A stretch of DNA of 64,000 bases from NCBI GenBank assembly GCA_031213475.1, contig JARUPZ010000014.1:4612556-4676555 (forward strand), given 5' to 3'. A program made the translations under genes and the position numbers. This DNA comes from Nereocystis luetkeana (Eukaryota; Sar; Phaeophyceae; Laminariales; Laminariaceae). Every line of letters starts with the position of its first letter. The stretch's first letter is position 1. Positions 1-64,000 of this stretch are shown piece by piece. A model generated the notes under the pieces. The model ran no database searches, had not been told where the DNA came from, and saw only the letters and a list, made by a program, of their open reading frames with translations.

Positions 1-115
1 GAAGAAAAAAACGCTACCCCCTTCGGAAAAATTGTTCTGCCTGGACCATACCGCACCTGGGCACAAAATGCCCTGCACATCATGAAGGGGTCCGGACACT
101 GGTACACTTATATAC

Positions 116-123
116 TATTAATA
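116..123. repeat. TA-TTAA-TA scar with empty paralog
   Basis: The word TATTAATA stands here where the duplicated segment at 35,025-35,026 has a lone TA in matching flanks (tatatacTAcga). The difference is exactly a TTAA insertion plus a duplicated TA. I infer an excision scar of a TA-targeting element with TT...AA ends. Confidence 0.6.
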
Positions 124-168
124 CGAACTAAATATCAGCACCGTCCTAATGATCTCCGACCATCATGC

Positions 169-280
169 GCAAATAGTGTTTGTTCTGCGATGCACCTTCA
201 ACGCACACTTGCATGGCCGACTTCGCAAATAGTGTTTGTTCTGCGATGCACCTTCAACGCACACTTGCATGGCCGACTTC
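169..280 (+). repeat. Perfect 56-bp tandem duplication
   Basis: Positions 169-224 and 225-280 are identical 56-mers beginning GCAAATAGTG. The paralogous segment near 35,078-35,130 has a single copy, so the duplication arose in copy A and is recent. Confidence 0.9.
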
Positions 281-743
281 CTTCATTCATATCAGGTACC
301 TGGTATGCCCTTACGAAAGCCAGTTTTGGCCGGCGCAGGTTGGTACTACGGAAGGAGGGGGGTCACTTCAAGGTCCTTGCTTTGCACCCGCGCAGAGCCA
401 CTCGGCCGAGTAACTATCCGATTGATTTTAGTCATGAGGTTTCATTATTTTGGTTTCGCGATATGCACCACCGTTGTTTTGTTTGTTACTGGGTATGTTG
501 CACCATCAAATTGTTTTCCAGTCCAAGCGTGAGCGAGGTACAAGGACACTCGCCTGAGTGGCCTAAACGCGGCACATAGTGGGAAGTGAATATACTGCGA
601 TGCTTCAATCCTTTTCATAACACGCGAGCCACACGCGAGCCACACCATATTCCCCTATTTCCATACTCGATCCTAGACAACATTGCATGGGTGCGATAAA
701 GGCGACTCAAGAAGAGAGACATATGGGTTGGAATGGAGGGGAA

Positions 744-860
744 CGGAGGGGGGGGGGGGGGGGTATGATTATATGAGGTGGAGGGTTTCGCCTTCGAGGA
801 GGGATGGGTTTGAAGGGGGGGGAGGGGGAGGGAGGGGAGGTAGGGGGGGGGAACATCTCG
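744..860 (+). repeat. Poly-G and G-rich tracts
   Basis: A run of about 18 G is followed by GGGGGAGG-type G-rich sequence to about 855. A matching G-rich block lies at 35,577-35,680. Apparent ORFs on both strands here are compositional artefacts. Confidence 0.8.
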
Positions 861-1149
861 TCGTTGGTGCTTCCTTCAGCGTACTCTTCTAACTGGACGA
901 AGATCACCGACATATCCGAAGGACCATATATTGCACGGAGAGCTGTAGTAGCAGTTGCGTAAACACCAGACCGCTTGCGTGGCGAGGGGAGAGGGGGGCG
1001 GTGCGTCAGGATGCCTTAGTATTTTTTTTTCTGTGTCGGAGTCCTCTGAATACAAGGCGACCGCCCCCCTTTTATGCATATAGAGCGAGTCTTCTCATGT
1101 ATGTACGTACGGTGCCTATATTAGGCGAATCGTTTTCAATAAGCTCCTA

Positions 1150-1279
1150 TTACGGGGGACCATAGTAAATAGGACCGAGTATTGTTATAATAGTAAAAAT
1201 GGGGAAAAATAAACCGGTACCTGGTATGTTTTTGAGTATACTGTACCAGGTAGGCCCTATTTACTATAGTCCCCCGTGA
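1150..1279. mobile_element. TA-targeting MITE, TTACGGGGG family, copy 1
   Basis: Terminal inverted repeats run from TTACGGGGGACCATAG to its complement ending CCCCCGTGA. The element is flanked by TA at 1148-1149 and 1280-1281. The paralog near 36,000-36,015 lacks it (only short TA-rich sequence between matching flanks). It has no coding capacity. Two TACCWGGTA words lie inside (1218-1226 and 1244-1252); the second replaces a plain TA in the related copy at 2337-2338. TA duplications suggest Tc1/mariner mobilisation. Confidence 0.85.
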
Positions 1280-1568: not shown

Positions 1569-1880
1569 TGTGTGTGTGTGTTCTTCACATTAGATTAAAC
1601 CGTTCTTTCTACCCGTCGACATCCAGCACAACTAGTGTCCGTGCCGATTCTTCAATCCTAGAAGATATAAAAGTTCTGAGGTCACAAAGCTGCGCCACAG
1701 AGATACTACGTTGCCACGTACCTGGTATGCAGTAAGCACAGCAGTGGGCAATGCAATGCCATATCATACCTGGTACTATTAATAGATAGGACAGGCACGA
1801 CATACACATTCTATGAAACAGAGAAACGAAAGGAAACGATCATAGAGAAAACAAAAATAAAGAAGACAAATCGAGAGAGA
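1569..1880 (+). repeat. Dispersed repeat family A, copy 1
   Basis: The repeat starts in a GT-rich stretch, continues through TTCTTTCTACCCGTCGAC and ends in a purine-rich segment near 1880. Other copies are at 40,068-40,255 plus 41,528-41,720 (split by a LINE), 61,388-61,785, and a diverged one at about 56,010-56,140. This copy carries TACCTGGTA at 1767-1775 followed by TATTAATA at 1777-1784; both are absent from the other copies. No conserved ORF was seen. Confidence 0.8.
1767..1775. repeat. TA-CCTGG-TA scar with empty paralogs
   Basis: In two other family-A copies the same position is a single TA (61,585-61,586 and 40,255-40,256). The insertion is exactly CCTGG plus a duplicated TA. I infer a transposon excision scar. 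Confidence 0.65.
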
Positions 1881-2108: not shown

Positions 2109-2124
2109 TACCAGGTACCTGGTA
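2109..2124. repeat. Stacked scar TACCAGGTACCTGGTA
   Basis: Two TACCWGGTA words overlap by one TA (2109-2117 and 2116-2124). This is expected if a second insertion and excision used the TA created by the first. Similar stacks lie at 3703-3718, 39,226-39,241 and 43,341-43,356. Confidence 0.55.
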
Positions 2125-2490: not shown

Positions 2491-2595
2491 TTACGGGAGA
2501 CCATAGTTAATAGGACCTATGGTATACATAAAGACCTATATATTTAACCATTTTTACTAACAATATTTGGTCCTATTAACTATGGTCCTCCGTAA
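2491..2595. mobile_element. TTACGGGGG-family MITE, copy 4, with exact empty site
   Basis: The 105-bp element has ends TTACGGGAGACC and GGTCCTCCGTAA, flanked by TA (2489-2490, 2596-2597). At 36,904-36,915 the duplicated segment reads gcttgcTAagatattt with one TA and identical flanks. That proves a TA target duplication and fixes the element ends to the base. Confidence 0.92.
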
Positions 2596-2720: not shown

Positions 2721-3240
2721 CACGACTCGTGCTACACCCGCTAAGCCTATACCAGGTATGTATGTACCATGTACGTCGTTACGTGATTATTTATGTAGAC
2801 TACCTAAACACAAGTGTCCAAAAGACGGCTCGGGGACGAGGGGTACTCATTTGTTGCTTTTGCCTCGAGTCATCTGACCATTGACCACGCCTCCTTCGAG
2901 GCGGAGAGTACCGTTCCTACTCCTACTGCTGTGATAGAGAGATCTCCAACAGTCAGTCGTTGGGCGCTCACTACTCGTATGTTGTTCGCATACCTGGTAT
3001 ATTTATGTTACATCGGGGGGGGGCGAGAAAGAGAGACATCCCAGAATGAAGGAGGTTCGCGTTGGTATATCGATAAATAGAGCTTTACGAAACAGCAGTC
3101 AGTATACGACGCGTGTAGCTGAACTATATCCAACTACAAAGCGAGACGTTTAGAGCAGACGCCGTCTGAGCGTACGTACATACCTCGTACCTACTATTAA
3201 CACTATACGTGGCCTATTTTATCAACTACATATGTAGAGC
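2721..3240. other. No gene recognised
   Basis: Only two TACCWGGTA words (2750-2758, 2991-2999) stand out. Short ORFs lack any recognisable domain. Confidence 0.6.
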
Positions 3241-3560: not shown

Positions 3561-3899
3561 GAGAAAAAAAAAAAGTATAACAGAAGTACCAGGTATGATA
3601 TTAATAGTACACGCATACGTACGCTTCAACCATTTCGTACGTAGTGAAGAAGACACACACACGTAGCAGAACCGCAGAAATGGCCAACGGCAAGCAAAAC
3701 CATACCTGGTACCTGGTAGATATTGGACATGTACCAGGTATGCGGTACTGCTGCTGCATCATGATTCAGATCATGGAACTCTCGTATAATATGAATACTC
3801 TTGGTCTGTATAATCAGACGATAATAATTCGTAGGACAGCATAAAAGTGCCAATAATCCCCGAAACCAGGTACACCGGCTGTACCTGGTGCTACAATGT
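3561..3899. other. Gene-free stretch with scar cluster
   Basis: Contains TACCAGGTA at 3587-3595, TATTAATA at 3599-3606, a stacked TACCTGGTACCTGGTA at 3703-3718 and TACCAGGTA at 3732-3740. No coding signal was seen. Confidence 0.6.
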
Positions 3900-5099: not shown

Positions 5100-6770
5100 A
5101 GAGGAGGTTTGTTCCGTTCTGGCTCTTCCTTGACGAGTCCCTCTTAGTTGGGCAGTGGGCTGTTCCAGGTGCCTACCGCCGTCGGAAATTTGGGCCGCCG
5201 TCGGATAACCGGAAACTTGAAATTGTTCGTCGCAACCCCTGAAGACCGAGACTGTAAACCCCAGACCATGCTGTAGTTCCTGTTTGCACGATGTTCAGAT
5301 GGGTGCAATGCGCCGCGCGGGTCGACACCGAGGAGCCGCCTTTACCACTGCTGTCCTGTATTATCAAGGATGAAGTACAGGAACGGAGGAATGCCATGTG
5401 GTTCCATCATTACAAAGGGGGTGTTCGAATCAAATAGGGCTAATTTATCCGGGGGGGTGATTGTGAAAGCCCCGAAAACGCGGCGGGATTTTGATTTTAG
5501 TTTTTCAGCTGCTGAGCGCTGCACGCTGCCACGCTGCCAGTTGCCGGCCCTGGCTCTCTTTCCCCGCAGTGACCACGAGGGTATACTGAACGAACTGACC
5601 AGGTAGCAAACAGCATTGCTGTCGTGCATTTTGTGAACTAGTTACTATGTATTTCTTTTAAGGTCGAGCTGTGACAACGACCTGTGTTGTTGCACGTTGC
5701 TGCTGCTGCTGTATGTCAACCCACACCAAGTGGCTGCCCTGAACGGCTGCTTGCTTTTACATCGCCTATTAACAGTTGTATGGTTATTGTAGTCCTGGGT
5801 TCCTGCTACAGTCTGTATGTATACTGCTGCTGTACAAAATATCGACTACCGGTAGGTGCGAAAGACCGGGTCGATGTCGTAGGTGTGGATGTTGCCTTGA
5901 ACTACTTCTTCTCTACGTATGTACCTGCCATGTACACAACAAACTACAGTAAAAGTACCCAGTACGTACGACTCCCGCGACCATCCTTGCGGCCCACGAT
6001 GTGGACAGTGGACAGAGTTGCATCTACTACTGCTGTAACGGCACAGCATAAGATGTATTCGAAATCCATGTATTGCAGCTATGGCTCAACATCCCATAGT
6101 TATACGCTCTTCGTTGTGCTGTTATGTGTAGTCGTATCAGGTACCAGGGTATCAGCTAATTTTTTTTTTTTTTTTTTTTTATCCTCCGGCTGATTGGTAA
6201 AAATAAAGCTTAAGGTATCAGCTAATAATAAAACATCTAACACCGCCAGAACACCGCCGCCGTATCGGGTACAGCTCGTACGTCGTACCTGGTATTATTA
6301 CGGGTATGCACATATCCACTGCTCTGTACTGAAGAAGGTAAGACACCGCCCGCCAATATTTTCCGAGCCAGGTATCTTCATTACAAGCGCGGCAAACACG
6401 CGCGAAAACCAGGTATGGTGCATTTTCAAGCAAATAACTCGCCGAGACCTTTCCATGGGCGCATCGCACTTTGAGTTTGCAATCTCCCTGTCGTCGAGAA
6501 GATCAGCCTGGAGGAAAGCCCTGTTCGCGGCGGCGCCTGGGGCACCCGCGAGATGTAAAACTAAAACTATGGGATGCACCAAGCCAGAACAACTCCCATC
6601 GATGATACGCGAGCAGTACTGGTGAATTGAAAATTTGGGTTGTTGTTTGTACCGCCCAACCAGTGGGCGTGCCCGTAGTGACAAATAATCGCGTGTATCG
6701 AAGCAAGTGCAATCAAGCTCCGCGGCGTAGTACAACAAAGGAACAAAGGAAAGGTTTCAGGTTATTTTGG
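5100..6770. other. No gene recognised
   Basis: ORFs reach about 170 codons (for example 5,684-6,193) but show no domain and run into an approximately 20-nt poly-T at 6,160-6,181. One TACCTGGTA lies at 6,286-6,294. This may be decayed intergenic sequence. Confidence 0.5.
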
Positions 6771-8046: not shown

Positions 8047-8049
8047 ATG

Positions 8050-12778: not shown

Positions 12779-12853
12779 GGACGTGGGACAGGCCTCCGCA
12801 GAGTGCCCTCGTCCTTGGCATCGGCTGCATAGCTTCGCCGTGCAGTCGCTCTT

Positions 12854-14185: not shown

Positions 14186-14188
14186 CTT

Positions 14189-16893: not shown

Positions 16894-17370
16894 GACTAAG
16901 ACCTTAACAAGGCGCTGGGGACAACTTTGCCCAACCCCCATAGACCATCGCCGAATCGCCTTCCAGCTCCGAGAAGCCGCCCTGACCGTTGGCGCTCCTG
17001 TAAGCTCGTTTTCACCCAGCGTATAAGGATTACCCTGGGCTGGGTAATCGATCGGTCGTTTACCCCTATAGCTCAATAGGTAACACCTTCACACGAGCGC
17101 GTATTTGGAGATCTTGTCGCCCGAGAATGTCCACGTGGAATATGAAAAACACAAATGTTGTTGGTCAATTACGCGCCGGCCACAACTTAACTTGCAGTTA
17201 CTATATACGGGGGACCATAGTTAATAGCACCTATGGTAATACATAAAAACCTATATGTTTAACATGTTTTACTAACTATATTTGGTCCTATGAACTATGG
17301 TCCCCCGCAACATTGTTATCCTGCGGACAAGTGGTAGGCAACGGGTAAACACATGTTGGCATACGATTCA
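16894..17370 (+). repeat. Target repeat and array remnant right of the Copia insertion
   Basis: Begins with the continuation of the interrupted target (AAGACCTTAACAAGG). It carries an A-box-like TAGCTCAATAGG at about 17,060 in a block that also occurs inverted at 1,905-1,975, and then a unit of the 7.5-8.0 kb array (17,090-17,360) split by a MITE. Confidence 0.65.
17205..17310. mobile_element. TTACGGGGG-family MITE, copy 5
   Basis: Ends ATACGGGGGACC and GGTCCCCCGCAA; left flank TA, right flank CA (mutated TA). It interrupts the tandem unit whose intact form is seen at about 7,915-7,945. Confidence 0.8.
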
Positions 17371-19329: not shown

Positions 19330-20620
19330 GCTTTTAGCCACACGCCGCAGGTAGGTGCTTTCAGGCATGCTGAGATAGGCACGCCGCAGGCTAGAAAAAA
19401 AGAGATAGGCAAAAAGATAGGCATGCATGACGTGCCTTAATTTGCCTTAAACGTGCCTGTTTAAGGCATTTGCCTTAAAAAATGCCTGAGACGTACCTGA
19501 AACCTTTTCGGCGCCCCACGACAAATCTTATACTAGTTTAAACCGGAACCATTACATCACCCGAACACGAGCGTTGTAAATCCTGCGAGGGGGTCCGTCC
19601 GGTTGAAGTTGATCCTTGACCCTGCAAGCTCCAAGCCGCAGTTGTTTTCGTTGCCCCCGACTCCCCACTCTCCCCACTCTCCTCACCCCCCACACACCAA
19701 CACGTCCCTACCCCCGCGCACTCCATAACACGCCCGCACTCTGTCGGGAACGAACATCGGACATGTCTATATCTGAGCCACAGCAGGGACCATCCTGTCG
19801 ACTGCTGCTATCATCCTCGTTCGTGCCTGTCGCCACATCCCACAAAACACATGGTTTGTCCCGGTCCGTGCTTCGCCCAGACATTTCATGTTTTTCCTTC
19901 TTCTCTCTCGTCACGTCCTCCATGATGAGCAGCTGGCAGCGCATATAGTGAAGCGCGAGTCCTCCTCTAGCCGCACAGACAACCGACTTATTGCGACAGG
20001 CTGCCGCTCGGTGCGGCTGAGGGCCTGCTAGGCACTGTCCTCCTCAAGATTTTGCATGCGGACACGGCACTTCACATCGCAGGTCGGGCGTGGCCCTCGT
20101 CCGCAACAAATGCGGGCTGTCTACATTTTTTCGGGAGGCGGAGCAACCCATTCTACGAAGAAAGCGTAGGTTCAGTTCTGTGTACCAGGTAATTTTTTTT
20201 TTCTGAATAATTTTCTCGGAAAAATCGTTGAACTTTCAGCTAAACTTCGGGCAAGAACGTTCGTGGAAAATCATCATCCATATTTTCTCGGAATTTTCAT
20301 TTTCATATGTTCTCAATATGTTGGTGGGAAAAAAGTAAGAAGGGTTGCCACAAATAGCAAAAGCTTTCTCCCTAGCCGACATCGAAGGCGTTATCCATTC
20401 TCGAAGTTTCAAGTAGTTTTGTGTGAATGGGCAAAATGCCTGAAAAAGTGCCTGAAACTTGTTCAACGCCCCAACGTAAATCTTAGACTAACTTCAAGTA
20501 GTTTGGTTTCAGGTAGGAGGTGGTAAAAGGCGTGAAAAAATGCCTGAAACCTATTCACCACAGTAAGGAGAAACCCTATATATACTAACATCGAGTATAG
20601 TTAGTTTTCGAGAGGTAAAA
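19330..20620. repeat. Region rich in short TGCCTGA/TGCCTTA words
   Basis: Many degenerate copies of GCCTGAAA, GTGCCTG and TTAAGGCA words cluster at 19,340-19,510, 20,430-20,560 and on to 21,120 and 21,870-21,990. They read like a degenerate minisatellite. Between them (19,510-20,160) I see no supported gene. Confidence 0.5.
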
Positions 20621-21872: not shown

Positions 21873-22741
21873 GAAGCGTGCCTGGAAAATATAGGCAAGG
21901 TAGGCACGAAAAGAGTAGTTCAGGCACGCCTGTTTTAGAAACAAACAGCAGTTTAGCTAGGCATTTTTTCAGGCATGGCTAGGGCCTAACATGAATACAG
22001 GTACATGAAATGAATACGTAGGACACAATGATGGCTGTAATTGGCCAACAGCGCCGTTACATTACTGCTGCTTCCTGAGTACAAACATCTTAATGAGCGT
22101 GCTACGAGTAGGAGTACAACAAGCAGGCTGGATTTGGGCTGTTGTTGCACATCGCTGCAACCGTGCAGCAGCAGCAGGCGAAACCATGCGCGTGAGGTGG
22201 CACATATATCCGCAGTATACGTACTCTTTCTATCGTGCGTTGCATGTATGCGTCGGAGCCTCTGCGATGCATCACGGAATAATATTTATATTAGGTAGGT
22301 AGAGCTTGGGGCGCGGGCGCCTGTATCCCGACTCCGAACCACACCTACGACGACAACACCAATAACAAGCGCCACACCGGAAAACTACTCCCCCTTTCTG
22401 ATGTTGCCGAGCAGTAGCAAACAGGCAAAACCAGCGCGTGAGGTGGCACAGCGACGACGACATCAGATTTTTTTTTTTATTAAAACCGTCCCGTTCCGTC
22501 ATAAAAGAATATCACTGCTGTTGTTGTTCCTGGTTGTTCGGTCCTGTCGTGAAATAAATACCTGGTATAGTACTGCTGTACTTACTTACACTCCCGTCGT
22601 GCAACAAAATCCTTTGTAGTGCTGTCCCGTCCCGTCGTGAAAGTCTACACCCCTATGAAATTTACCGTGCCGCCCCGTTGAAAAATGGTGCACCCACTGT
22701 ACCTTCCCGTCCCGTTCCGCCGACTGAAGGGGCGTTATTAA

Positions 22742-39960: not shown

Positions 39961-40255
39961 AATAATCCTAGGGACCAGGTACACACAACTGCTGTACCTT
40001 GGTCACCTGCACCATGGACGGAAATTCCGTTTCGTATTCATATTATCTACCAGTACCTGGTACCAGGTGTGTGTGTGTTCTTCACATTAAACCGTTCTTT
40101 CTACCCGTCGACATCCAGCACAACCAGTGTCCGTGCCGATTCTTCAATCCTAGAAGAGATACAAGTTCTGTGGTCGCAAAGCTACGCCACAGAGATACTA
40201 CGTTGCCACGTGTGCAGTATGCAATGCAGTGGGCAATGCAAAGCCATGTCATCAT

Positions 40256-41527: not shown

Positions 41528-42206
41528 TAGATACGACAGGCACGACATACGCAATCTATGAAATAGTGAAACGAAAAGAAACAATCAAAGAGAAAACAAA
41601 AACAAGGTAGACAAATCGAAAGAGAAAAAGAAGAAAAATGAAAGCAAAATCTAGGAGAAACAATCTGTCGTGCCCCCCCCCCGCAGGCGAGGTGGCCAAC
41701 ACTTAAAAAAGAACGAGCTGGAAAAAAAGGAAGAAAAATAATAACAAAAAACACCACTTCTTGTAAACAGAGTAAGACAAAGAACCAAGGAAAAGAGTAA
41801 CAAGGAAAAATAAAAAAGGGGAAATAACAGGCAGACCAAACCAGGTATCAACCAACCAACCAACCTCGTACCGTACGATGGATACGTTTACTTGTAGAGC
41901 GACTCTGCGCTGGGCGTGCTCTTCCGACGAATATTATTAGGCGTACGGCGTACGTCGTCCCGCGTCCACAGGCAAGCAACACGTTTCCACAAGAAGACTC
42001 CGCGGGGGTGCACGAGAGGGCGCGCTCACCAGAACGGACGATCGTCGCGGTCGTAGAGCTTGGTCCATGATGGGCCTGAGACTGATGCTGGAGTCCTCGA
42101 ACTCCCTGACGAGCGAACGACGAACAAAAAACAGACTTGAAAAAAAAACGTTGTCGAGGTGATTGAGGAAGGGGTGTACGTACCAGGTATATAAATGCGT
42201 CAAAAA

Positions 42207-42346: not shown

Positions 42347-42373
42347 CTATTAATATTATTTTTATTATTAATA
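42347..42373. repeat. AT-rich insertion built of two TATTAATA words
   Basis: TATTAATA at 42,348-42,355 and 42,366-42,373 surround TTATTTTTAT. Copy 1 of family B has only TA (4248-4249) in identical flanks (gttcgTAggacgg). Confidence 0.6.
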
Positions 42374-42559: not shown

Positions 42560-43425
42560 GTTCCGTACCCATCACTACTACTATTCTTAATAGCTACGCG
42601 ATGTAATGTGTAGGAAGTTTACCGCGTCGTTGTTGCTCTCACGTTAACTCGTGTCCAGGATATTGATTGAGTCCGTTGCCACAGGACACAGGCACAAACA
42701 CTGGAGCGGAATGATATCTCAGGGGAAAAAACAACAAGTCAAACCAAAAAACGAAAAAACTGTCAGGTACACATCATAAACTGATCCACGTTGCACGCCT
42801 CAAACAGGAAAAAGTCAAGTCGTTGAGAAACCTTCGCACGTTCGTTAATTCTTCTAGTAGTAGTCCTGTAGTAGTCCCGTTGCGGGAACAATTCACTCAA
42901 ATTCCAAGCAGTTTTGTGCCGAAAACGATGGCCCTAAAGAACGCAAATACAATCGCAGAAACCCGGCGCGACGACTAGAACGTTCTTCTTTTTCGACACC
43001 TGCCAGCCTTCTAGAGCGGAAGGGAACAACTAACCGGAGTTAAAACTCCTGGAAGCCACCGCCCACCCTCACCACACGTAACCTCACTACGCCTCATCAC
43101 CCAGAAACAAGCACCACACCACCAGCGTTGGTTTATATGATGGGCTGTAGCTTGTCCGCCGGCCGAAATGACGGGTCTCCCGCCACTACCACAGCAGCAC
43201 CAGCACCACCAGGCGTAGCAGCAGCAGAGAGAAACACCACCATGAAAGCTTGGGTTGAGGAAGATGATGAAGAAGAAGAAAGCCAAGAAGAAGGAGAAGA
43301 GGAGGAAGGTGGGTCGACAAACAGGAAATAAATATGTGTATACCAGGTACCAGGTACACCTGGTGGTAACATTTTTTGGCACGTTTAGTGAGAGACGTTG
43401 GGCTTATCATTCTGAGATCAAAACG
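42560..43425. other. No gene recognised
   Basis: A diverged TTAA-MITE-like relic may lie at 42,860-42,945 (AGTCCCGTTGCGGGA and TTCCAAGCAGTTTTGTGCCGA). A GAA-rich tract is at 43,255-43,315 and a stacked scar at 43,341-43,356. No protein is supported. Confidence 0.45.
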
Positions 43426-43579: not shown

Positions 43580-43684
43580 TTGCGGGAGACCATATTAAAT
43601 AGGACATACGGTGCACACAAAAACCAATATATTTCCCTGTTTTTACTAGCATTATTTGTTCCTGTTAACGACGGTCCCCCGCGA
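43580..43684. mobile_element. TTACGGGGG-family MITE, copy 8
   Basis: Ends TTGCGGGAGACC and GGTCCCCCGCGA; left flank TA, right flank TG. It lies 53 bp from the TTAA MITE. Confidence 0.75.
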
Positions 43685-45488: not shown

Positions 45489-45489
45489 T

Positions 45490-47960: not shown

Positions 47961-48384
47961 GTAAGTAGTGGTTTCGAGGTTTACTACTACTGTTACTAGA
48001 CCACCGGAGATTCGGGCACTAGAGAAACATGCGTCGTTTAGATACAGGCTCACGGCGGAGTGGAGATACTGTAGTGGAGAAGCTTAACGCGGCCACACTT
48101 GCCTTCGTTCAACCATCGTCGATGGTGCAAGTTTGTTACAGCAGTCATCACCAATCATCCCGCCTATGGTTTATGCATGACGCGAGTTTAGTTAATCTCA
48201 ACGTGGGGAAACACTCAAAATAATTTGGTGATCCAATCAAATTGCCAAATTGCTAGCCTACAAGATCTACGCGTAGGTCTCGAGCAGTAGTTTGACGACA
48301 AAAAGTACGGTGTAGCTTCGATTTTTCTTCACACAACAGTATACCAGGGTATATATACCTTTTATTTCTATCAATATTGAATAT

Positions 48385-48610: not shown

Positions 48611-49063
48611 CCATTGGTGTTATCATGTTCGCTATTCGACAATGTGCGGCATAACCCCCGACGTCGATCAGGCGCAAACGCTCCCATAAATAAATATGAA
48701 GGCAGCCAAGGGAAACCGAAAAAGAAAATCTACTGTATATATGCTCGGCGTCTCTTCTAGCTCCCTTCTCAACCAACTCCCGGCCTAATACCGATATACC
48801 ACTTTTTCTGCCCTTACTCCACCCTCCCTTCTCACTGCGTGCTCACCACTGTAAATAGTAGTGTTGTATATGTACTTCGTAGACATATATTTATGAGGGA
48901 TCGACGTTTCAAGTTTATGCCGCACGCTGCTGTCCAATGACAAAACACGTAATAATGCCGACACGATTAAAACGATACCTGGTACCCTGGTATGTATTTG
49001 ACAAATAACCTCCTGTTATAGACCACCCCGGAGATATTCGCGCTACGTACTGGGGAAGAAAAG

Positions 49064-50674: not shown

Positions 50675-50682
50675 TATTAATA
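50675..50682. repeat. TA-TTAA-TA scar with exact empty site
   Basis: atatacTATTAATAggtagtttttgttg here; atatacTAggtagtttttgttg at 50,869-50,890 (TA 50,874-50,875). The difference is exactly TTAATA. Confidence 0.75.
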
Positions 50683-50938: not shown

Positions 50939-50947
50939 TACCAGGTA
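50939..50947. repeat. TA-CCAGG-TA scar with exact empty site
   Basis: cttgtgaTACCAGGTActattttta here; cttgacaTActattttta at 50,740-50,756 (TA 50,747-50,748). The difference is exactly CCAGGTA. Confidence 0.75.
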
Positions 50948-53139: not shown

Positions 53140-53360
53140 CTGAAACATACCATATCACCAGGCATATTTAGCCATATAATACATCCACGACATTGTACCA
53201 TGGTACCTTACCACAAACGTACCATACCATATACCTGGTACTGTGTTTTTCCCGTACCATACCGTCAACGCATACCATACCACATACGGTGGTTTTCCCA
53301 TACTCCCATATACCATACCACCAACATATCCCATATCCCATACTCGTACCGTGTAAGGCA
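53140..53360 (+). repeat. CATAC(C)-rich degenerate repeat
   Basis: CCATAC, ACCATA and CATATACC words recur throughout. It contains TACCTGGTA at 53,232-53,240. Confidence 0.65.
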
Positions 53361-53389: not shown

Positions 53390-54375
53390 GACCAGGTGCC
53401 TGCTACTACTGCTGTAGTGCCGTGTTGTTGCGCGAGGGTGGCGATAAATACAGAGTATGTACGTCGAGCACTGCTGTTCGCCAGACCAAAGAAAGGCAGT
53501 CAGAGTTGGCCCAGGCGCTTGGGTCCTACGCACAGTGCAGCGCATTGGCCGCTGGTGTGCACACAATACATGAAAAACATTATCTGCGAGTACCACTGCT
53601 GTATCCGTCTCGAACGGCAAAACATGTTTTTTTTTTCAGATTTGGGAGGATACCGTAGGACGCCGCCGGCAAGCTCTTGCCCCCTAGAGCATGCATCCAC
53701 CTCATTTCTTCGAGCCCGTCATCTATACTAGTTGATTTTGCCCGCCACAGAGCGGGTTGGTCGTGGTCTGAGTCTCTGTCGAGATCGAGCGTCTATGGTC
53801 GCACGAGCTGAAAGAAAATGTTTGTGTAGTTCGCGTTTTCATTCGCACACTATAGCAGGTATTTTACAGTACAACAACAGGAGTGAATTACTTCTTGTAC
53901 GACAGCGAAATTATCTACGAGTACTGCTAGTAACAGTTAACTGCTGTATCCGTCTCGAATGGCAAAACAATTGCATACTACCAGGTATTATTGGTCTTTT
54001 ACAACAGCAGAGGATTACTTCCTGCTTTTCGCCTTTATTTGTATTTTACGATCCTCGTCGTATGTTTCGGTACTCGCAAATAATAACCAGTTGAAAATAC
54101 ATGTCAATCTGTAGAATGTGTAACAACCCGCAACATGTTTTTCATTGGCCAACAAAGCGTCCTCGTCAGCTCTCGGACCGCTTGTTGGGGGTCTCAAATG
54201 TTTATCTCTACAATAATAGTAACCTCGCTGTTTTTACTTCGCTTTCATGTTGCGGTCCTCGTGTCAATCTTCGGTACTCTCTCTTGTCCATGTGATCTGT
54301 CGTTTTTGCCCCCTGGAGCACGCATCCACCTCATTTTTTCGAGCCCGTCATCTATACTTGTTGATCTTGCTGTGA
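53390..54375 (+). repeat. Imperfect repeats, no gene recognised
   Basis: CTGCTGTATCCGTCTCGAA occurs at about 53,598 and 53,941. A 60-bp block with CATCCACCTCATTT and CCCGTCATCTATACT occurs at 53,693-53,738 and 54,323-54,365. No protein is supported. Confidence 0.6.
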
Positions 54376-54785
54376 GCTGTATGCTGTACGGCGTGCCACA
54401 CCATGAAAACAAATGCCCAGAAAACCTTTGCTACCCAATATATTCATCTCGAGTATACTGCTGTACGTGCTTGTTCGGAAAAGTTCCCAAGTACATATTT
54501 TGGGAAAACCATATTTCACGCTGATCGTTGCATATATATTTTGGCAATGTTGTGTAGACTCGATTGACGTTTTTTTTCTAATAATCAATACCCAAATAAA
54601 GTACATATTCAATTCGTATGATATTAATAGTACGACCACGGGTATAGTGTTGATTACTTTGTAACCGTCGTGCGCACAAGCGCAATACCTGGTACACGTC
54701 AAGAAACCCCGCGGCATACCACTGCTTGCTGTGTGCCACAGTCGACCTATCACTTTCGTCATTCCCACGGCCCTCAAGCATAATA

Positions 54786-54885
54786 TTACGGGGGACCATA
54801 TATAGTAAATAGGACCTACGGTAAAGGCAAAAACCTATATATTTACCTATTTCTACCAGCATCTATTTACTACCGTCCCCCGTAG
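54786..54885. mobile_element. TTACGGGGG-family MITE, copy 9
   Basis: Ends TTACGGGGGACCATA and CGTCCCCCGTAG, TA flanks at 54,784-54,785 and 54,886-54,887. Confidence 0.85.
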
Positions 54886-55484
54886 TAGTAGGCTGTGAAA
54901 GGGTCTGGTGCATCATCACTGCTTACTACCCTGGTACTGTTAGTAGCAGCACGAAAAAGTCTAATTCGCATCAACTTCAAGAAGACAAGTAACTCGCTTT
55001 TACTTTTCAATCCTCTGTGTGGTGCAGACATGTGTGTTCAGAATCTGTCTTTAATCGTCAGTCGATCACTTTGTTACCGTCGTCGTGTATTTTGTCTTCT
55101 CGATTTCAGAAAATGAATACCTGCTCAACACTCAATATATTGTTCCTTGCAAGCTGTACCTACTGATCCACCACCACCTGGACTCTACATGACGTTACAA
55201 TAGCAGCATGCTTCGTAAAAGGAGGGTGTCTTTCCGTACGTCGGGGCGGGCAAGCTTCCGGCTTACATTGCCGCTCGAAACCGGAGCCGTGAGCCGTGGG
55301 CTTTCTTAGAGGCGAGGGGCGACATTCGGCGATATACAGATATCGGCAGACGAGCTTCCCCGTAAACACTACGGTACCACCGCCGTATGGACCAGGCAAA
55401 CCACAACCTATTATTGGTGGCTGTTGGGGGGCGGGGCGTCCTGCTCCCGCCGTGCTATCGTACTGCTGCTGCTGTGCTGGCATA

Positions 55485-55505
55485 CCACTCTGTCCCGTAA
55501 TATAG
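55485..55505 (+). mobile_element. CCACTCTGTCC-family MITE left end
   Basis: TA followed by CCACTCTGTCCCGTAATATA. No matching right end was found nearby, so it is a truncated copy. The flanking 54,890-55,480 has a Q/P/G-rich minus-strand frame (55,160-55,483) with no domain. Confidence 0.5.
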
Positions 55506-56009
55506 TAATCGTGTTTAACGGGCGCGCGAGCGCGAAGCGCGTGCCTTTTGTTCTTGGTTTTCCAAGGAAAAGAAACAGACGTTCAGTCTGAGCCAAACCT
55601 CGCCTGTTGTTGGGGTGCCGTCTGTGCTGGTACCGACTGGTCTCTCTCCACACTCCCACCAACTCCAACTAACTGCGACTTCGCAAAAAAGAAGACAAGC
55701 AAACTGAGAACATCGCTCGAATGCATTTCATCGAGGGCAATAACAATCTAAAATACAACAGATGATAAGTTTTAGTGTATGTAGTAATATATCGTACCGG
55801 TCTGTGTTTCAGTCACTAAAATGACATGAAACATATGCATACAGGTTTTAGTATGCCCATACTAAAGGCCTTACAAGCTAAATAATCAAATAATCATGAT
55901 CAACCAACCAGAAGAACAGGCCCAAGAGAATCAATGATCAAGCCCTTTTTTTGGTTGATTACCAAAAACGCTAATAATAATAGGCAGGTATAACAGCTAC
56001 GGGACATCA

Positions 56010-56140
56010 GGTCCCGTGCCGATTCCTGATTCCTAGGGAGGTACCTGGTACAAGCTCTATGGTCACAACAGTACGACACAGATCATATATGCTACATGAA
56101 AACGCGGTAAGCAGTGTTGACCGTGCAATGCCGTGCCATC
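56010..56140 (+). repeat. Family A, diverged copy 4
   Basis: GTGCCGATTC, TACAAGCTCTATGGTCACAA and CAGTATGC-like words occur in the same order as at 40,130-40,235. Confidence 0.5.
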
Positions 56141-56240
56141 GTACTGGATACGATACTGTCTCTCTCGTTCGCTGCAGAGCTTTCTCGTGCACGGGATGTG
56201 CCTGTGGCGTACACAAACGAGTTACTTTGTAGTAGGGATA

Positions 56241-56319
56241 CACCGCTCTGTCCGTAATTAAAACGACCGTTGGAAAAATAAGATAAAACAAAAGGTGCTT
56301 ATTTTTCCGGACAGAGCGG
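56241..56319. mobile_element. CCGCTCTGTCC-type MITE, 79 bp
   Basis: Left CACCGCTCTGTCCGTAAT, right ATTTTTCCGGACAGAGCGG. Right flank TA (56,320-56,321), left TA at 56,239-56,240 or a CA derivative. Confidence 0.8.
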
Positions 56320-56345
56320 TACCAGGAGACGGGGATGACATCACG

Positions 56346-56430
56346 ACTCCTCTGGCCGTAAATGTAAGAAGATTTTGAGTATCAGCATGAGTGCTCAAAC
56401 GGCGCTTACATTTATTTCCGGAGAGGGTGG
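56346..56430. mobile_element. CCACTCTGTCC-family MITE
   Basis: Left CTCCTCTGGCCGTAAATGTAAG and right CTTACATTTATTTCCGGAGAG are inverts over more than 20 bp. It sits 26 bp from the previous member. Confidence 0.7.
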
Positions 56431-56756
56431 CGCGAGATTTACCTCTTTCCGGGCGTGTCGCCTCTATTTACAGGAGCAGCTGATACATGCTGTTGTCGCA
56501 CTCCTTTGGCACACTATACATGGCACTATCACACTGGGTAATGAGATAACACACCCCCTGGGACGAATTTCAGACCCGATTTCCTCCTCCAAAACATGCC
56601 TTAAGGGGCACACACAACGAAAATAGTGGCTTTGGAAATATTTCTTCGAGAAGGTATGCATAGACGCATCATCGCTCGTCGTATTCAGTACGCCCTACAC
56701 TCCCCGTTGCCGAGAAACCCATCACAGCTTCGAAAATCGTCTGAGGGGGGGGGGTG

Positions 56757-56930
56757 TTCTCGGTATCATGCATGGCCGTAGTCGTATGACCATAGACCCT
56801 CGCATCCCTACAATGCGGGGACGAAGCACGTCGGGTTTTCAACGACCAGACATACACATTGCTTGCACCAAGCGCGAAGCGCCGTGAGGTGTTGGGCGAG
56901 TCGCCGCGGGGGTGGGCTATCTTGCGAGTT
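56757..56930 (-). repeat. Family D core, inverted
   Basis: Reverse complement of the 46,815-46,998 core, with a small length change near 56,845-56,855 that breaks the frame kept in other copies. Confidence 0.8.
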
Positions 56931-57019
56931 ATACGGCTGCCCACGCCGGACACATCTCAACCTTCCTGACTTAGGCGGAAATATAAGGACCCTTTAGAGG
57001 GGGATGCACAGCATTGTCC

Positions 57020-57360
57020 TTTTTCGCGGCGTGCCGAGGCACCACCTGCGGCAAACCTTCCACGGTATCTTCCACGGCATACCACCGAACCCTCCACGGA
57101 CCTCCACGGCATACGATGGAACCCTAACCCTAACCCTAACCCCAACGTAGGTGCCGTGAACATTGGGGTGCCGTGGGGGTTGCCATGACATTCCGTGGGG
57201 TTCCCATGGAGTGCCGTGGCGGTTGCCACGGGGGTTGCCATGGTACCACCGGCGGCATGCCACGGCACTCCCCACGGCGTGCCATGAAATCATATGCCAC
57301 ACCATGGGATGCCGTGGGGATGCCATGGTATACCATGGGTGTTACCATGGCCATGTCACG
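57020..57360. repeat. GCCATGG/GCCGTGG-rich palindromic stretch
   Basis: About 340 bp dense in GCC(A/G)TGG and CCACGGC words on both strands, giving many alternative hairpins. Proline/histidine/tryptophan-rich minus frames are compositional. Confidence 0.7.
57121..57143 (+). repeat. Interstitial telomere-type (CCCTAA)n
   Basis: Slightly over three perfect CCCTAA units, within the palindromic stretch. TTAGGG is a telomere repeat in many eukaryotes, including several algae. Confidence 0.8.
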
Positions 57361-57718
57361 CAAAATTCTTAATAGTGTAGAACCCTGCCTTTAGACATTA
57401 CTGTGAGGACCAATCGGTCCTTAACACTTCCGCCCAGAGCGGTATTTACTTCTCGCGATAGAGGTATCCCATTTTGGCGGGGGGGGAAAAGCTTCTAAGC
57501 CTCCACACCGTGCATCCTTACCGGGCGCCAGTTGAAGGATAACTATGTGACGTGTGCTCTACATTATTGGGCACAATGCGTACGTACACGTACCAGATGC
57601 GTGTACGAAGCATCAGTCGTTTTCATATGCCCATAATATCCCCGTTGAACTCCGGACTATACCTCAAGGGGGTATATAGGAGCCTCTGTTTGTTTGGGTG
57701 AGCCTCTATCGTAGAACG

Positions 57719-57803
57719 CCTCCATCCTGCCCCCAAATAGATGGATCGTTTTGAATGAAAATGAAATATGCAAAAGTATCCCTATATTTACGGACAGAGT
57801 GGT
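57719..57803. mobile_element. CCACTCTGTCC-family MITE
   Basis: Right end CTATATTTACGGACAGAGTGG then TA (57,804-57,805). The left end is degenerate (CCTCCATCCTGCCCCCAAATA). Confidence 0.5.
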
Positions 57804-58216
57804 ATCAAATATTGATCGCCCATATCAGTGGGTTGGGACACGTGCACAGCATAGATCATGAGCATCCTACGGAACATCACGTGGAAACATGTACCAGGTA
57901 GATACTACACAGAACCACGGGTATCTACGATCTACGACCAGATCAGTAAAATAACCCGGGCACGCGCATGACATCATGACCACACTACCCCCGAATCGTT
58001 CGCCAGACATGCAGCTCATTCAGATCCTGTACGATCAATCCTGTCAGTGTGGAAAGTTGTGTACAGGTGACGCAGGTCCTTGAAAGTGATCGATGTGATC
58101 TGTCGACTGGCTTCGTCAGGGCGACGTGCGGGATATCGCATGCTGCTGTGTGCACGATGTTGCTCGCTCACCGTTGCCCGTTTCTATTGCTTTAACCGGT
58201 AGATACTCTATCAGTA

Positions 58217-60480: not shown

Positions 60481-61304
60481 AGTCAACCTGCAATGTGCCG
60501 TCGGCGAGGCCGAACCCGTCGCATGGCTAGAGGAATCCAAACCCTAGGACTGGATCTCGGGAAATGTTTTGCAAAGGGTAGATTCTCGGCTCGGGGCGGG
60601 GCGAGGCGGATGGGGGGGACGAAGATGGGACAAAGCGGGCGGTGCGGGTTAACCAGGTGGCCGCGAAATGTTGGCGGCGGGGGGGAAACCTACAGTAGTA
60701 GTGAAGTAGGAACCTTGCTCTATAAAACAAAAACTATTATCCTGTGTCGTTACGGTACATGTGTTTTAATTTTTATTCCGTCGTCAGTACCCCGGTTCGT
60801 ATATCATGCCAATAATGTCTGTCAATATCTCAGCCTGTGTCTCTCTTGAGTCGCATACGCACATACATGCATGCATCTGGTGCAGACGGTGGTGATGGTG
60901 GTGATTTGTAGTGTCTAAATGTCAGCAGGAGGAGCCTCTATTTTCTTAGTGCTTTGGTAGTGCAGTGCACATAAATAGGTAAGCACGCCATGATCAGCAG
61001 GGAGTGGGTAGTGGTGGCAATCAAAATTGTAGACAGTTAGGTCAGTGTCGTTTATTTTCGCTGCGGCATACAAACAGCAAGTTTCCCTGTCCTTGTGGTT
61101 TAAACTTCGTTGAACGGATGTGACCGGTTGTCGACGAGACTGGCTAGAGGAACGAGCTGACAAACTTACTGCTGACAAGCGATTTTTTATGATGAGCACA
61201 TACGCAAACGGCAAGATCAGGGAAACCTAAAAGTCTCCAGATTGCAACCATCTAAAGTTTCACCCAACGCACTTACGCCTCGTCGAATCGTTGTGAAGTA
61301 GGTA
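60481..61304. other. No gene recognised
   Basis: Short ORFs without motifs. Confidence 0.5.
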
Positions 61305-61387
61305 TTACGGGGGGCCATAGCAACTATTGTTAGAACCAAGTGTTATTGTTAGCAAAAATAGCGAAATATATAGGTTTTTGTATGTAT
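61305..61387. mobile_element. TTACGGGGG-family MITE, copy 10, truncated
   Basis: Left end TTACGGGGGGCCATAG with TA at 61,303-61,304 and the internal AAATATATAGGTTTTTG segment. The right half is replaced by family A from 61,388. Confidence 0.75.
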
Positions 61388-61785
61388 GGTGTGTGTGTTC
61401 TTCACAATAAACCGTTCTTTCTACCCGTTGACATCCAGCACAACCAGTGTCCGTGCCGATTCTTTAACCCTAGAAGAGGTACAAGTTCTTTGGTAACAAA
61501 ACCACGCCACAGCAGAGATACTACGTTGCCACGTAGCTGGTATGCAGTAAGCACAGTAGTGGGCAATGCAATGCCATGTCATCATACTATAGATACGACA
61601 CAGGCACAAGACATACATGTTCTATGAAATAGAGAAACGAAAGAAAACCAAGGAGAAACAAATACAAAAGAGACAAATAAGTAGAAAGAGAAAACGTCGA
61701 AAAGAAAAAATATAGAAGGAACAAACAAACTGTCGCGCCCCCCCCCGCAGGGGATGTGGCAGACACTTGAAAAAAAAAAGGAAGA
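61388..61785 (+). repeat. Dispersed repeat family A, copy 3
   Basis: Uninterrupted version of the LINE-split copy: CATCATAC continues directly into TATAGATACGAC at 61,581-61,597. It extends to the CGCCCCCCCCCGCAGG block that is also present at 41,671-41,690. Confidence 0.85.
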
Positions 61786-62019
61786 AGGACACCAAGGTAT
61801 GCGAAACAGTAAGAAACCTACCCATACACATACATGAAGAAACCTTATTTATTGTCCTCCTTTCGGCTAAACATCGATCTTCTCCAAATAATGCCGCCTT
61901 TTCTCACGTTGCCCTCTCATTGCACGTTCACCCACCGTCTACTCTTTAGTCCACTCCGGGTCCGGGCTCCATCTCCACGGCATGAGTGCGGGTGTGTTGC
62001 CCCTCCCTCCGTGCTTTGC

Positions 62020-63135
62020 CCCGTCTCGAAAGGGATGCGAGGTTAATGGTCACATACATGACTATGGCAAGCAAAAAATGAGTACCCCCCCCCCCTGTAA
62101 TATACACCTGGTGCGTATATTATAAGTTGGGTTGGCGTTGGTTGGCGGCGGGGCTACACAACACGCCTTTCACTACGTGAGCTAGACAACCAGGGCACCG
62201 TTTGTTTTTCGCGGTCACCAAGGCTGGCGGTCGTGTTGAGCGGGGACAACCTTAACTCCGCATAATAAGAGGGATGATCGTATCACGTAGTGTGTACATA
62301 CATGGTAAGGCACCCGCGTGGCAGCTGAAGAGTAAACCCATTGCTGTCTCTGGAAGTGACCGCACCACAAAATCAATAAATTCATTGACGCTGTTACCCT
62401 TATAATATGCGAGAAGTTCCGCCTCAAAAGCGGTTCTTCGTAGGATGCACCTCACCCTTCATGCGACTCGCCCAACACCTCACGGCGCTTCGCGCTTGGT
62501 GCCAGCAATGTCTTCCTGGTCGGTGAAAACCCGACGTGGTCGGCCCCGGCATTGTAGGGATGCGAGGGTCTATGGTTATACAACTACGGCCATACATGAT
62601 AATGAGTACACCCCCCCCCCCCCTTATTATATGGGTTGGGTTGGCGTCGGTTGGCAACGACACTGTAAAACATGCCGCTCACTATGTGAGCTAGACAACT
62701 AGGGTACCGTTGTTTTGTTTTTGGCGGTCGCCCACAGCTGGTCGTCGAGTTAGATCATTGTGCGAGGTATATAAAATTTACTTCGTGCTAGGGAATTGAT
62801 TGTATCACGCAGTGTATAAGGTAAGACACCCAACAAGCAGTTACATAGTACTTCCATTGCTGCCTGGAAATGCCTACGACCGGAAATTAAATTAATTCAT
62901 TGAAGCTGTCATCCATATACAAGTCCATTTTACAAGCGGTTCTTAGTAGGATGCCGCTCACCCTTCATGCGACTCGCCAGACACCTCACGGCGCTTCGCG
63001 CTTGGTGCAAGTAATGTCTGCCTGGTCGGTGAAAACCCGACATGCTCCGTCCCGGTATTGTAGGGATGCGAGGGTCTACGGTCATACGACTACGGCCATG
63101 CATAAGATCGAGCACACCTCTCCTATCGAGTACAC
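62020..63135 (+). repeat. Family D tandem array, ~505-bp units
   Basis: A partial core at 62,020-62,075, then units 62,123-62,631 and 62,632-63,135, each GGGTTGGCGT(C/T)GGTTGG to core. Cores at 62,430-62,610 and 62,930-63,110 preserve the minus-strand ~57-codon frame ending TKNR(L/F). Confidence 0.85.
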
Positions 63136-63145
63136 CCCCTCCTCC

Positions 63146-64000
63146 ATGTCGGCGAACGCCAAGAAATGCGCGGTAGTTGCTTGTAACGAAGATAAGGTGA
63201 GCCCGATAAATTTCTGTTGGAAGTGGGGAGAAGATGAATTGCTGATCGTAGACCAGTATACGTACCTTGGCGTAGAGATCTCAAAAGACTGCTCTTGGGA
63301 TACACACATATATATAGCAAAAGTAATAGGAAAGGGTAAACCACACATAGATAGGCAAGATGGATGCGATCCTAACAGACTCGCACCTTGACACCAGGAT
63401 TAAGAGACGTATCCTGATGAATGTGATAGTACCAAAGCTAGAGTATGCAGGAGAAGTATGGGAAGGGGACGCGAAACTCGTAAAACAGTTGGAAACAGTA
63501 CATACATATGGCAGCAGCTAAAAAAAACTTGAGACGCTCAAGTACGACTAGTAATAGAGTATTAAGAGCAGAATTGGGAATGCACCCACTCAAGACAAAC
63601 AGGGATATATATATATATATATGAGAAAGTTGAAATGGCAGTATAAAGTAAGGAACATGCCAAAAAAGAGCTTGCCAGCCATACCCGGTAGTTGATAGAG
63701 CGGTATGGGAGAGAGTAACGAAAAGGCGAGCTGGAGTAAGGTGGGATAGCGTAGTTGAGAAAGTATGGAAGGATATAGGGGGAAACCAAAAAGGTGATGT
63801 CCGCCGGGAAGTTTGGGGAGTACAAGGCAGAAGTAGAAGAAATGAACGGGAACGCTAGCGCTACGAAACAAGGTGGAATCGGAAAAAAACACTTAGATAT
63901 ATACGGAGGATTGAGCGAAGGCATAGGAATGAAAACATATTTGCACGGCCCAATGGACTTCGCGAAAACGCTGAAACTGCGCTTTCGTGTAGGTGACCAG
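63146..64000 (+). pseudogene. LINE reverse transcriptase C-terminal fragment
   Basis: Starts in family D and runs off the right edge. The first frame (63,146-63,391) contains DQYTYLGVEISKDCSWDTHI, the conserved region after the RT palm of many LINE pols. The match then continues in other frames (words such as KLEYAGEVWEGD, GRYGRE-like and KTYLHGPMD), so at least two frameshifts and an AT-microsatellite insertion (about 63,606-63,622) have disabled it. It is a different LINE lineage from the 40-kb copy. Confidence 0.75.

What the first reader, a model, noticed from the sequence alone, without database searches (positions are those of the whole stretch)
1..64000. TACC(A/T)GGTA words as excision scars of a TA-targeting MITE family
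I count about 31 exact TACCWGGTA 9-mers (for example 297, 1218, 1244, 1719, 1767, 2109, 2750, 2991, 3587, 3732, 6286, 20183, 22559, 28025, 42181, 48976, 53232, 53979, 54686, 56042, 57892), against about 0.5 expected for equal base use. Paralogous repeats show the empty state as a lone TA at three places with clear alignments (50,939 vs 50,747; 1767 vs 61,585; 1244 vs 2337). The inserted CC(A/T)GG is what would remain if an element with ends CCA...TGG left a few terminal bases whose central A/A mismatch resolves to A or T, as Tc1-type scars do. An MITE family with just those ends (CCACTCTGTCC) is present here. The family and its scars would let past excisions be counted.
Basis: partly seen in the sequence, partly recalled or inferred. 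Interest (0 to 1): 0.88.

Follow-up and report, generated by a model that had tools for sequence, protein, structure and literature searches.

The report
Fossil scars of a vanished transposon
A nine-letter DNA word repeated some 180,000 times in this large genome is best read as the scar left each time a jumping gene cut itself out, so the genome keeps a countable record of past jumps by an element that we could not find.

Summary
The window has 31 TACCWGGTA (0.51 expected in shuffles); the 465-Mb eukaryotic genome has 182,395, against 1,744 for the reversed control. Paralogous repeats carry a lone TA where others carry TA-CCWGG-TA, an exact 7-bp insertion. The flanks form a palindromic target, WAnnATR-TA-YATnnTW. 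The words are best read as excision footprints of a TA-targeting cut-and-paste transposon.

Minor 4- and 6-nt footprints with similar flanks (TACCAGTA, TACCAGGGTA/TACCCTGGTA) imply lost ends beginning CCAGGG, not CCACTC. In-register annealing of 5-nt 3' overhangs around an A/A mismatch would give CCWGG, as Sleeping Beauty's 3-nt CAG ends do. No intact element was found, including at 22 sites read in copies of one repeat.

A second footprint, TATTAATA (93,112 vs 10,689), fits an abundant resident MITE (about 105 bp, TTACGGGGG...CCCCCGTAA) with a matching TACTAGTA-like target, an internal positive control. No transposase is tied to either family.

The parts
297..305 (.). F1 scar TACCTGGTA
   Evidence: exact word
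1218..1226 (.). F1 scar TACCTGGTA
   Evidence: exact word
1244..1252 (.). F1 scar TACCAGGTA inside a resident-MITE (R1) copy; lone TA in an R1 copy of L026
1719..1727 (.). F1 scar TACCTGGTA; lone TA in L007 and L019, lone TG in window 40212 and a second L019 copy
1767..1775 (.). F1 scar TACCTGGTA; lone TA in paralog at 61585
2109..2124 (.). two chained F1 scars TACCAGGTACCTGGTA
2750..2758 (.). F1 scar TACCAGGTA
   Evidence: exact word
2991..2999 (.). F1 scar TACCTGGTA
   Evidence: exact word
3587..3595 (.). F1 scar TACCAGGTA
   Evidence: exact word
3703..3718 (.). two chained F1 scars TACCTGGTACCTGGTA
3732..3740 (.). F1 scar TACCAGGTA
   Evidence: exact word
6286..6294 (.). F1 scar TACCTGGTA
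   Evidence: exact word
20183..20191 (.). F1 scar TACCAGGTA
   Evidence: exact word
22559..22567 (.). F1 scar TACCTGGTA
   Evidence: exact word
28025..28033 (.). F1 scar TACCTGGTA
   Evidence: exact word
39226..39241 (.). two chained F1 scars TACCTGGTACCAGGTA
39863..39871 (.). F1 scar TACCAGGTA
   Evidence: exact word
40054..40062 (.). F1 scar TACCTGGTA
   Evidence: exact word
42181..42189 (.). F1 scar TACCAGGTA
   Evidence: exact word
43341..43356 (.). two chained F1 scars TACCAGGTACCAGGTA
48976..48984 (.). F1 scar TACCTGGTA, followed by the 6-nt variant at 48983
50939..50947 (.). F1 scar TACCAGGTA in a tandem repeat of about 62-bp units; lone TA in another unit near 50747
53232..53240 (.). 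F1 scar TACCTGGTA
   Evidence: exact word
53979..53987 (.). F1 scar TACCAGGTA
   Evidence: exact word
54686..54694 (.). F1 scar TACCTGGTA
   Evidence: exact word
56042..56050 (.). F1 scar TACCTGGTA
   Evidence: exact word
57892..57900 (.). F1 scar TACCAGGTA
   Evidence: exact word
6142..6151 (+). 6-nt F1 variant TACCAGGGTA
   Evidence: the class carries F1-like flanks on average
31129..31138 (+). 6-nt F1 variant TACCAGGGTA
48342..48351 (+). 6-nt F1 variant TACCAGGGTA
48983..48992 (-). 6-nt F1 variant (TACCCTGGTA)
54927..54936 (-). 6-nt F1 variant (TACCCTGGTA)
53196..53205 (.). possible 6-nt F1 variant TACCATGGTA (weaker class)
116..123 (.). F2 word TATTAATA
1777..1784 (.). F2 scar TATTAATA; lone TA in paralog near 61585
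3599..3606 (.). F2 word TATTAATA
23531..23538 (.). F2 word TATTAATA
32861..32868 (.). TATTAATA inside an R1 copy, within a 14-bp insertion
39888..39895 (.). F2 word TATTAATA
41329..41336 (.). F2 word TATTAATA
42348..42355 (.). F2 word TATTAATA
42366..42373 (.). F2 word TATTAATA
50675..50682 (.). F2 scar TATTAATA; 6-bp insertion against a paralog
54622..54629 (.). F2 word TATTAATA
1150..1279 (+). R1 MITE copy carrying F1 scars
   Evidence: both ends
2491..2595 (+). R1 MITE copy, TA-flanked, 105 bp
17205..17310 (+). R1 MITE copy, diverged ends
   Evidence: both ends
32820..32939 (+). R1 MITE copy, TA-flanked
39806..39918 (+). R1 MITE copy, diverged
   Evidence: both ends
43580..43684 (+). R1 MITE copy, diverged
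   Evidence: both ends
54786..54885 (+). R1 MITE copy, diverged
   Evidence: both ends
55485..57802 (.). outer pair of CCACTCTGTCC ends flanked by TA (may be two separate elements)

Best explanation
TACCWGGTA is the excision footprint of a Tc1/mariner-type cut-and-paste transposon that inserts at TA in the palindromic context WAnnATR-TA-YATnnTW and duplicates the TA. On leaving, the non-transferred strand would be cut about 5 nt inside each end (CCAGG...). The two 5-nt 3' overhangs anneal in register as C:G, C:G, A/A mismatch, G:C, G:C, and ligation plus repair of the mismatch to A or T gives CCAGG or CCTGG. Cuts at 4 or 6 nt give CCAG/CTGG/CCGG and CCAGGG/CCCTGG. Shown: the insertion with TA duplication at the scars that could be aligned, the target logo, the spectrum of minor footprints, and no filled site among 22 read in one repeat family. 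Inferred: the excision event itself, the transposase, the overhang length, and ends starting CCAGGG. Scars accumulate as a one-way record while the element stays rare or has died out. A parallel family, TATTAATA, fits the resident R1 MITE (ends TTACGGGGG) as source.
For: 182,395 vs 1,744 genome-wide. Exact 7-bp insertions at six distinct scars: L026_7056 (lone TA in 14 R1 places), window 1719 (lone TA in two paralogs, lone TG in two), window 1244, window 1767, L009 near 5267 and L012 near 3808. Palindromic target logo from 125 copies, no asymmetry when oriented by W (956 of 1000 permutations at least as asymmetric). Chained scars TA(CCWGGTA)2, 8 in the sample. 6-nt variants: the 20 places read have a mean target score of 1.70, vs 1.81 for scars and -2.37 for any TA, 0 of 5000 resamples. 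In an oriented hot spot the 6-nt words are CCAGGG 73 vs CCTGGG 8 among the 100 listed of 373 and CCCTGG 65 vs CCCAGG 5 among the 100 listed of 151, although the 5-nt W there is A in 74 of 100 listed. A scan of 339 TA-X-TA words also picks TACCAGTA, TACCAGGGTA and TACCGGTA. Positive control: F2 words and R1 share a target.
Against: No intact element with CCWGG ends was found: in the sample no family starts at a non-scar TACCWGG, TIR scans give none, and 0 of 22 R1 places hold one. Not every aligned scar fits: L030_6350 differs from most R1 copies by 5 bp, L033_7520 has CCTGG where R1 has CCA, window 39233 is offset by one base, and most of the 125 scars have no alignable paralog. Tc1/mariner footprints are described as 2-4 bp (PMC7913693, passages), so 5 is long. 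PF13358 and PF01359 have 0 matches; PF03184 has 28, but three loci read show no TIR. CCATGG, also predicted, has only intermediate flank support (mean -0.25) and CCCGGG none (-1.05), yet both are nearly as frequent as CCCTGG in the listed 100. AT-rich and R1 words also score in the flank scan.
Confidence: 0.8

Rival explanations
1. One reading: the CC(A/G)CTCTGTCC MITE is the source; 3-nt overhangs CCA/CCA meet with a one-base A/A overlap to give CCWGG.
For: The MITE is present with TA flanks. Its ends have a purine before TA in 10 of 10 with up to 2 mismatches, as most scars do. TACCATGGTA, its full fill-in product, is mildly enriched (4 in the sample, 0.36 expected). Slippage by one G during fill-in could mimic CCAGGG.
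Against: A CCAC end predicts CCACGG/CCGTGG; 0 and 2 of 100 listed. CCAG, CCGG, CCAGGG and CCCTGG with scar-like flanks need G as the fourth base or a special slip. The rest of the target logo fits poorly.
Confidence: 0.12
2. The word is a functional site (regulatory or protein-binding) kept or spread by selection.
For: It is a near-perfect palindrome and very frequent.
Against: It sits inside MITEs and other repeats as a 7-bp insertion with lone-TA alleles, is chained at 7-bp steps, has length variants with similar flanks, and seems to decay (124 one-mutant words vs 65 expected).
Confidence: 0.02
3. Programmed excision: the assembly shows a somatic genome from which TA-bounded germline elements are removed at every generation, leaving CCWGG.
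For: About 180,000 scars and no filled site among the 22 R1 places read.
Against: Scars appear to decay as ordinary sequence (about 5.7% per site if the excess one-mutant words are decayed scars), some are shared with mutations between repeat copies (window 61535 TAGCTGGTA vs 1719), and scars are chained.
Confidence: 0.03
4. The scars come from a known kind of pogo-like (DDE_1) element now reduced to a few coding copies; the footprint is ordinary for it. This is a special case of the best explanation.
For: 28 PF03184 matches, 15 without internal stops; pogo-like proteins, judged by eye, at three loci.
Against: No CCAGG ends or TIRs within about 1.7 kb of three high-scoring matches.
Confidence: 0.25

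Closest known systems
Sleeping Beauty footprint (Tc1/mariner superfamily)
   Same: TA target duplicated; tips of the transposon left between two TAs; 3' overhangs joined by end joining. PMC7827188 (passages): first nick 3 nt inside, 3-nt 3' overhangs; PMC8151067 (passages): CAG footprint. That the middle base resolves to A or T is recalled, not read.
   Different: Here 5 nt (CCWGG) with 4-, 6- and a few 7-nt variants; ends inferred, element not found; about 180,000 scars in one genome.
Stowaway MITE / rice OsMar 14T32 excision
   Same: 2-bp target duplication, and footprints holding element sequence plus both TSDs (PMC4561436, abstract and passages). R1 has this anatomy.
   Different: The F1 source has no resident MITE found.
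Passer and ZB transposons
   Same: pogo- and Tc1-type with small footprints; ZB prefers a palindromic AT repeat (PMC9976928 and PMC7913693, passages).
   Different: Their footprints are 0-4 and 0-3 bp; the main one here is 5.
Paramecium IESs (removed during development)
   Same: Tens of thousands of excision sites per genome (PMC8354472 and PMC4132734, start of abstracts); that they are TA-bounded is recalled.
   Different: Recalled: IES removal leaves a lone TA. Here CCWGG plus a second TA remain, and scars seem to decay as germline sequence.

Membership tests
Tc1/mariner superfamily (source of F1) | TA target site, duplicated on insertion | tested here: met
   TA to TA-CCWGG-TA, exact 7-bp insertions at six alignable scars
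Tc1/mariner superfamily (source of F1) | palindromic AT-rich target preference | tested here: met
   logo WAnnATR-TA-YATnnTW
Tc1/mariner superfamily (source of F1) | excision footprint of 2-4 bp from the element tips | tested here: not met
   main footprint 5 nt; 4-nt forms are minor; range from PMC7913693 passages
Tc1/mariner superfamily (source of F1) | intact element with terminal inverted repeats | tested here: inconclusive
   none in the sample nor at 22 R1 places; most of the genome was not read
Tc1/mariner superfamily (source of F1) | DDE/D transposase linked to those ends | tested here: inconclusive
   PF13358 0, PF01359 0, PF03184 28 matches, no TIR at three loci
Stowaway-like (Tc1/mariner) MITE: R1 | short, inverted ends, TA duplication | tested here: met
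   about 105 bp, ends TTACGGGGG/CCCCCGTAA, flanked by TA
Stowaway-like (Tc1/mariner) MITE: R1 | footprint with element tips between two TAs | tested here: met
   TATTAATA with the R1 target logo and TA-only paralogs; that R1 made them is inferred
Stowaway-like (Tc1/mariner) MITE: R1 | mobilised by a mariner-type transposase | not tested
   needs G, has C; one-base slippage is an escape
   11 ends, half-site score -0.22 vs +1.11 for scars and -1.18 for background

The most novel reading that the evidence does not exclude
A scar-only transposon lineage: a TA-targeting element with an unusual 5-nt stagger jumped on the order of 180,000 times in this germline without building up copies. Scars would far outnumber resident elements, so its history can be read only from footprints.
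Probability: 0.4. Interest if true: 0.82.

Novelty: new variant of a known kind. Interest (0 to 1): 0.72.

Why it matters
DNA transposon activity is usually counted from copies that stayed. Here departures are recorded: one scar per 2.5 kb on average, datable in principle by decay and by which repeats contain it. This makes testable how often elements leave versus stay, what overhang a transposase leaves, how a host joins such ends (the 4/5/6-nt spectrum), and how much a genome is changed by elements no longer present. Two families with distinct footprints and targets in one genome allow an internal comparison.

Tried and rejected
Chance and base composition: rejected by shuffles, Markov counts, word permutations and the reversed control. 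Intact source element in the sample: non-scar TACCWGG (130; 136 with flanks, which adds L113-L115). Two small sets of three copies each do recur there, but they are similar on both sides of TACC, so it is not their edge; one member, L019 2482, lacks the left part because about 350 bp stand between. TA-flanked TIR scans found no CCWGG-ended element; the first output was cut, so I reran it. Hot-spot trick (AAAACCTA plus CCWGG not followed by T): 373 sites vs 29 in the control. I read 39 of the 100 listed: 20 G-type and all 19 A/C-type. 22 of the 39 lie in R1, and in them R1 goes on at once or within some tens of bases, so no element is there (21 by alignment, plus L055 by eye; the alignment also counts L035, whose R1 is a second copy further on). 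The other 17 have no known right flank and tell nothing. Blunt fill-in of 4-nt ends predicts TACCAGCTGGTA: 38 vs 39, rejected. CCCGGG as a footprint: not supported (7 of 14 listed read). W tied to flanks: no, except that A is favoured in the R1 hot spot (74 of 100 listed), which may reflect scarred R1 copies that multiplied. Transposases: PF13358 0 (control rang in 3 of 14), PF01359 0 (control rang nowhere, so weak), PF03184 28 without TIR at three loci. Organism: not identified; a brown alga is a guess from size, 50% G+C and repeats. My notes after overstated some tallies; the report uses a recount. Literature: the two words occur in 217 papers, 30 listed, by their titles none about transposons; others (no paper) listed, by title and start of abstract, no paper on such scars in this kind of genome; the Ectocarpus transposon paper has 0 mentions of footprint, excision or MITE in its main text.

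Full report
Observation. The window holds 31 exact TACCWGGTA, at the coordinates given; dinucleotide shuffles give 0.51 on average and never more than 3 in 100 trials. The window lies in a 465-Mb, 1,987-contig eukaryotic genome where the word occurs 182,395 times against 1,744 for the reversed pattern. In a 311.5-kb sample (the window plus 25 stretches of 10 kb, L009-L033), it is by far the leading ordering of its letters between two TAs (125; next 10). Counts per 10 kb vary more than Poisson (mean 4.0, variance 9.0). The window has none in 8000-17400, which holds Ty1/copia-like reading frames (judged by eye).

It is an insertion. Separate alignment of left and right flanks to other repeat copies shows copies with exactly one TA where the scar copy has TA-CCWGG-TA. 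The best case is L026_7056, inside a MITE of about 105 bp here called R1: 14 R1 places have a lone TA there, two more are altered. Window 1719 has a lone TA in two paralogs and a lone TG in two. An all-against-all alignment of the sample (with L001-L003 and L006-L008) found 64 gap events of 7 bp, of which 8, from five distinct scars, contain the exact word; with window 1767 that makes six scars with an exact 7-bp difference. Most of the 125 scars had no alignable paralog. Exceptions: L030_6350 differs by 5 bp in a TATA run; L033_7520 has CCTGG where R1 copies have CCA; window 39233 is offset by one base; window 61535 has TAGCTGGTA, a shared and mutated scar.

It has a target. The flanks of 125 copies give a palindromic logo: purine before TA, T at -2, A at -3, A at -6, A/T at -7, mirrored on the other side. 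Scars oriented by the middle base show no left-right asymmetry (956 of 1000 permutations at least as asymmetric). Scars reuse their own TA: 8 chains TA(CCWGGTA)2 in the sample. Tc1/mariner elements are known for TA targets, palindromic AT preference and tip-containing footprints (PMC7913693, PMC8151067, PMC7827188, PMC4561436; passages read).

Minor footprints tell the ends. TACCNNGGTA occurs 28,845 times against 4,918 in control. By hand tally of the 100 listed places: AG 18 (8 in one array), CT 16, CG 14, AT 13, TC 8, GA 8, GG 6, AA 3, CC 3, TG, CA, TT, GC and GT 2 each, TA 1. I read 20 of the 26 AG/CT places outside the array: their flanks score 1.70 on average with the scar target (single places range from -2.28 to 5.38), against 1.81 for scars and -2.37 for any TA (0 of 5000 resamples). 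All 13 AT places average -0.25 (24 of 5000; several from one repeat); 7 of 14 CG places average -1.05 (641 of 5000, not supported). In the oriented R1 hot spot, CCAGGG beats CCTGGG 73 to 8 (first 100 of 373), and on the other side CCCTGG beats CCCAGG 65 to 5 (first 100 of 151), even though the ordinary scar there has A in 74 of 100 listed. A scan of 339 TA-X-TA words for scar-like flanks returns TACCWGGTA (z 16.5), TACCAGTA (5.6), TACCAGGGTA (4.2), TACCGGTA (4.0) and TACCATGGTA (2.9, n=4), besides AT-rich and R1 words that score by composition or ancestry. Most of these are products expected if 4-, 5- or 6-nt 3' overhangs beginning CCAGGG anneal in register and central mismatches are settled to one strand. 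The 8-nt fill-in product CCAGCTGG is absent (38 vs 39).

Where is the element? In the sample no family begins at a non-scar TACCWGG: the two small sets that recur there are similar on both sides. TA-flanked inverted-repeat scans find none with such ends. Of 39 hot-spot-word places read, 22 lie in R1 and in none of these is there an element; 17 lie elsewhere and say nothing. The same left flank carries 3,530 exact scars (control 0), beside 9,787 empty sites counted with a longer pattern. Scars look moderately old: 124 one-mutant words against 65 expected, or about 5.7% decay per site if the excess is decayed scars. Of three transposase families, only DDE_1 (pogo type) matches, 28 times, 15 without internal stops; the three loci read encode pogo-like proteins (by eye) but show no TIRs.

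A second family as positive control. TATTAATA occurs 67 times in the sample (1.9 expected) and 93,112 times genome-wide (control 10,689); AT-rich tracts add some. Repeat alignments show it as a 6-bp insertion into TA, and its flanks read TAC-[TATTAATA]-GTA. The MITE R1, ends TTACGGGGG...CCCCCGTAA, sits in the same target. TTAA fits 3-nt overhangs TTA/TTA overlapping by two bases, or 2-nt ends filled in; this is inference. So this genome appears to keep footprints of a TA-targeting MITE whose copies are still present, which supports reading TACCWGGTA as the footprint of one whose copies were not found.

Verdict. Observation confirmed; excision-scar reading supported; the named source not supported. 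The kind is known (Tc1/mariner-type footprints); the 5-nt footprint, the number and the missing source are unusual. Papers were seen as search listings or passages only. No paper describing these scars was listed, which cover open-licence papers only.

Noticed in passing
window 116-54629 (11 sites) and genome-wide: A second TA-duplicating footprint, TATTAATA, with target TAC-TA-GTA, matching the resident MITE R1.
   Followed up: yes
L009-L028 and window: TACAGTA and TACTGTA (a Sleeping Beauty-like CAG footprint) are about twice as frequent as expected, but CAG and CTA repeats confuse this; possibly a third scar family.
   Followed up: no
L055: At an R1 hot spot a decayed scar is followed by several CCCTAA telomere-type repeats.
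   Followed up: no
window near 57120-57145: A few interstitial CCCTAA telomere-type repeats.
   Followed up: no
G000 C1:1304145-1308353: Eight TACCAGGGTA, seven of them at 528-bp steps, point to a tandem array carrying one scar per unit.
   Followed up: no
window 8948-16648: Ty1/copia-like frames (8948-14206, minus strand) with a second partial, rearranged copy beside them (by eye), and no TACCWGGTA in 8000-17400, as if young or protected.
   Followed up: partly
G000 C2:7920664, C809, C872, C1099, C1378: Five equally scoring pogo-like matches, each with three TAG inside: a recent duplication or assembly copies.
   Followed up: no
window 29189-30403 and 31678-32113: Very long CTA and GTT trinucleotide arrays (404 and 145 units).
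   Followed up: no
L033 7520: TACCTGGTAGG stands where R1 copies read TACCATAGG, so this scar-like word is not a simple insertion into TA.
   Followed up: partly
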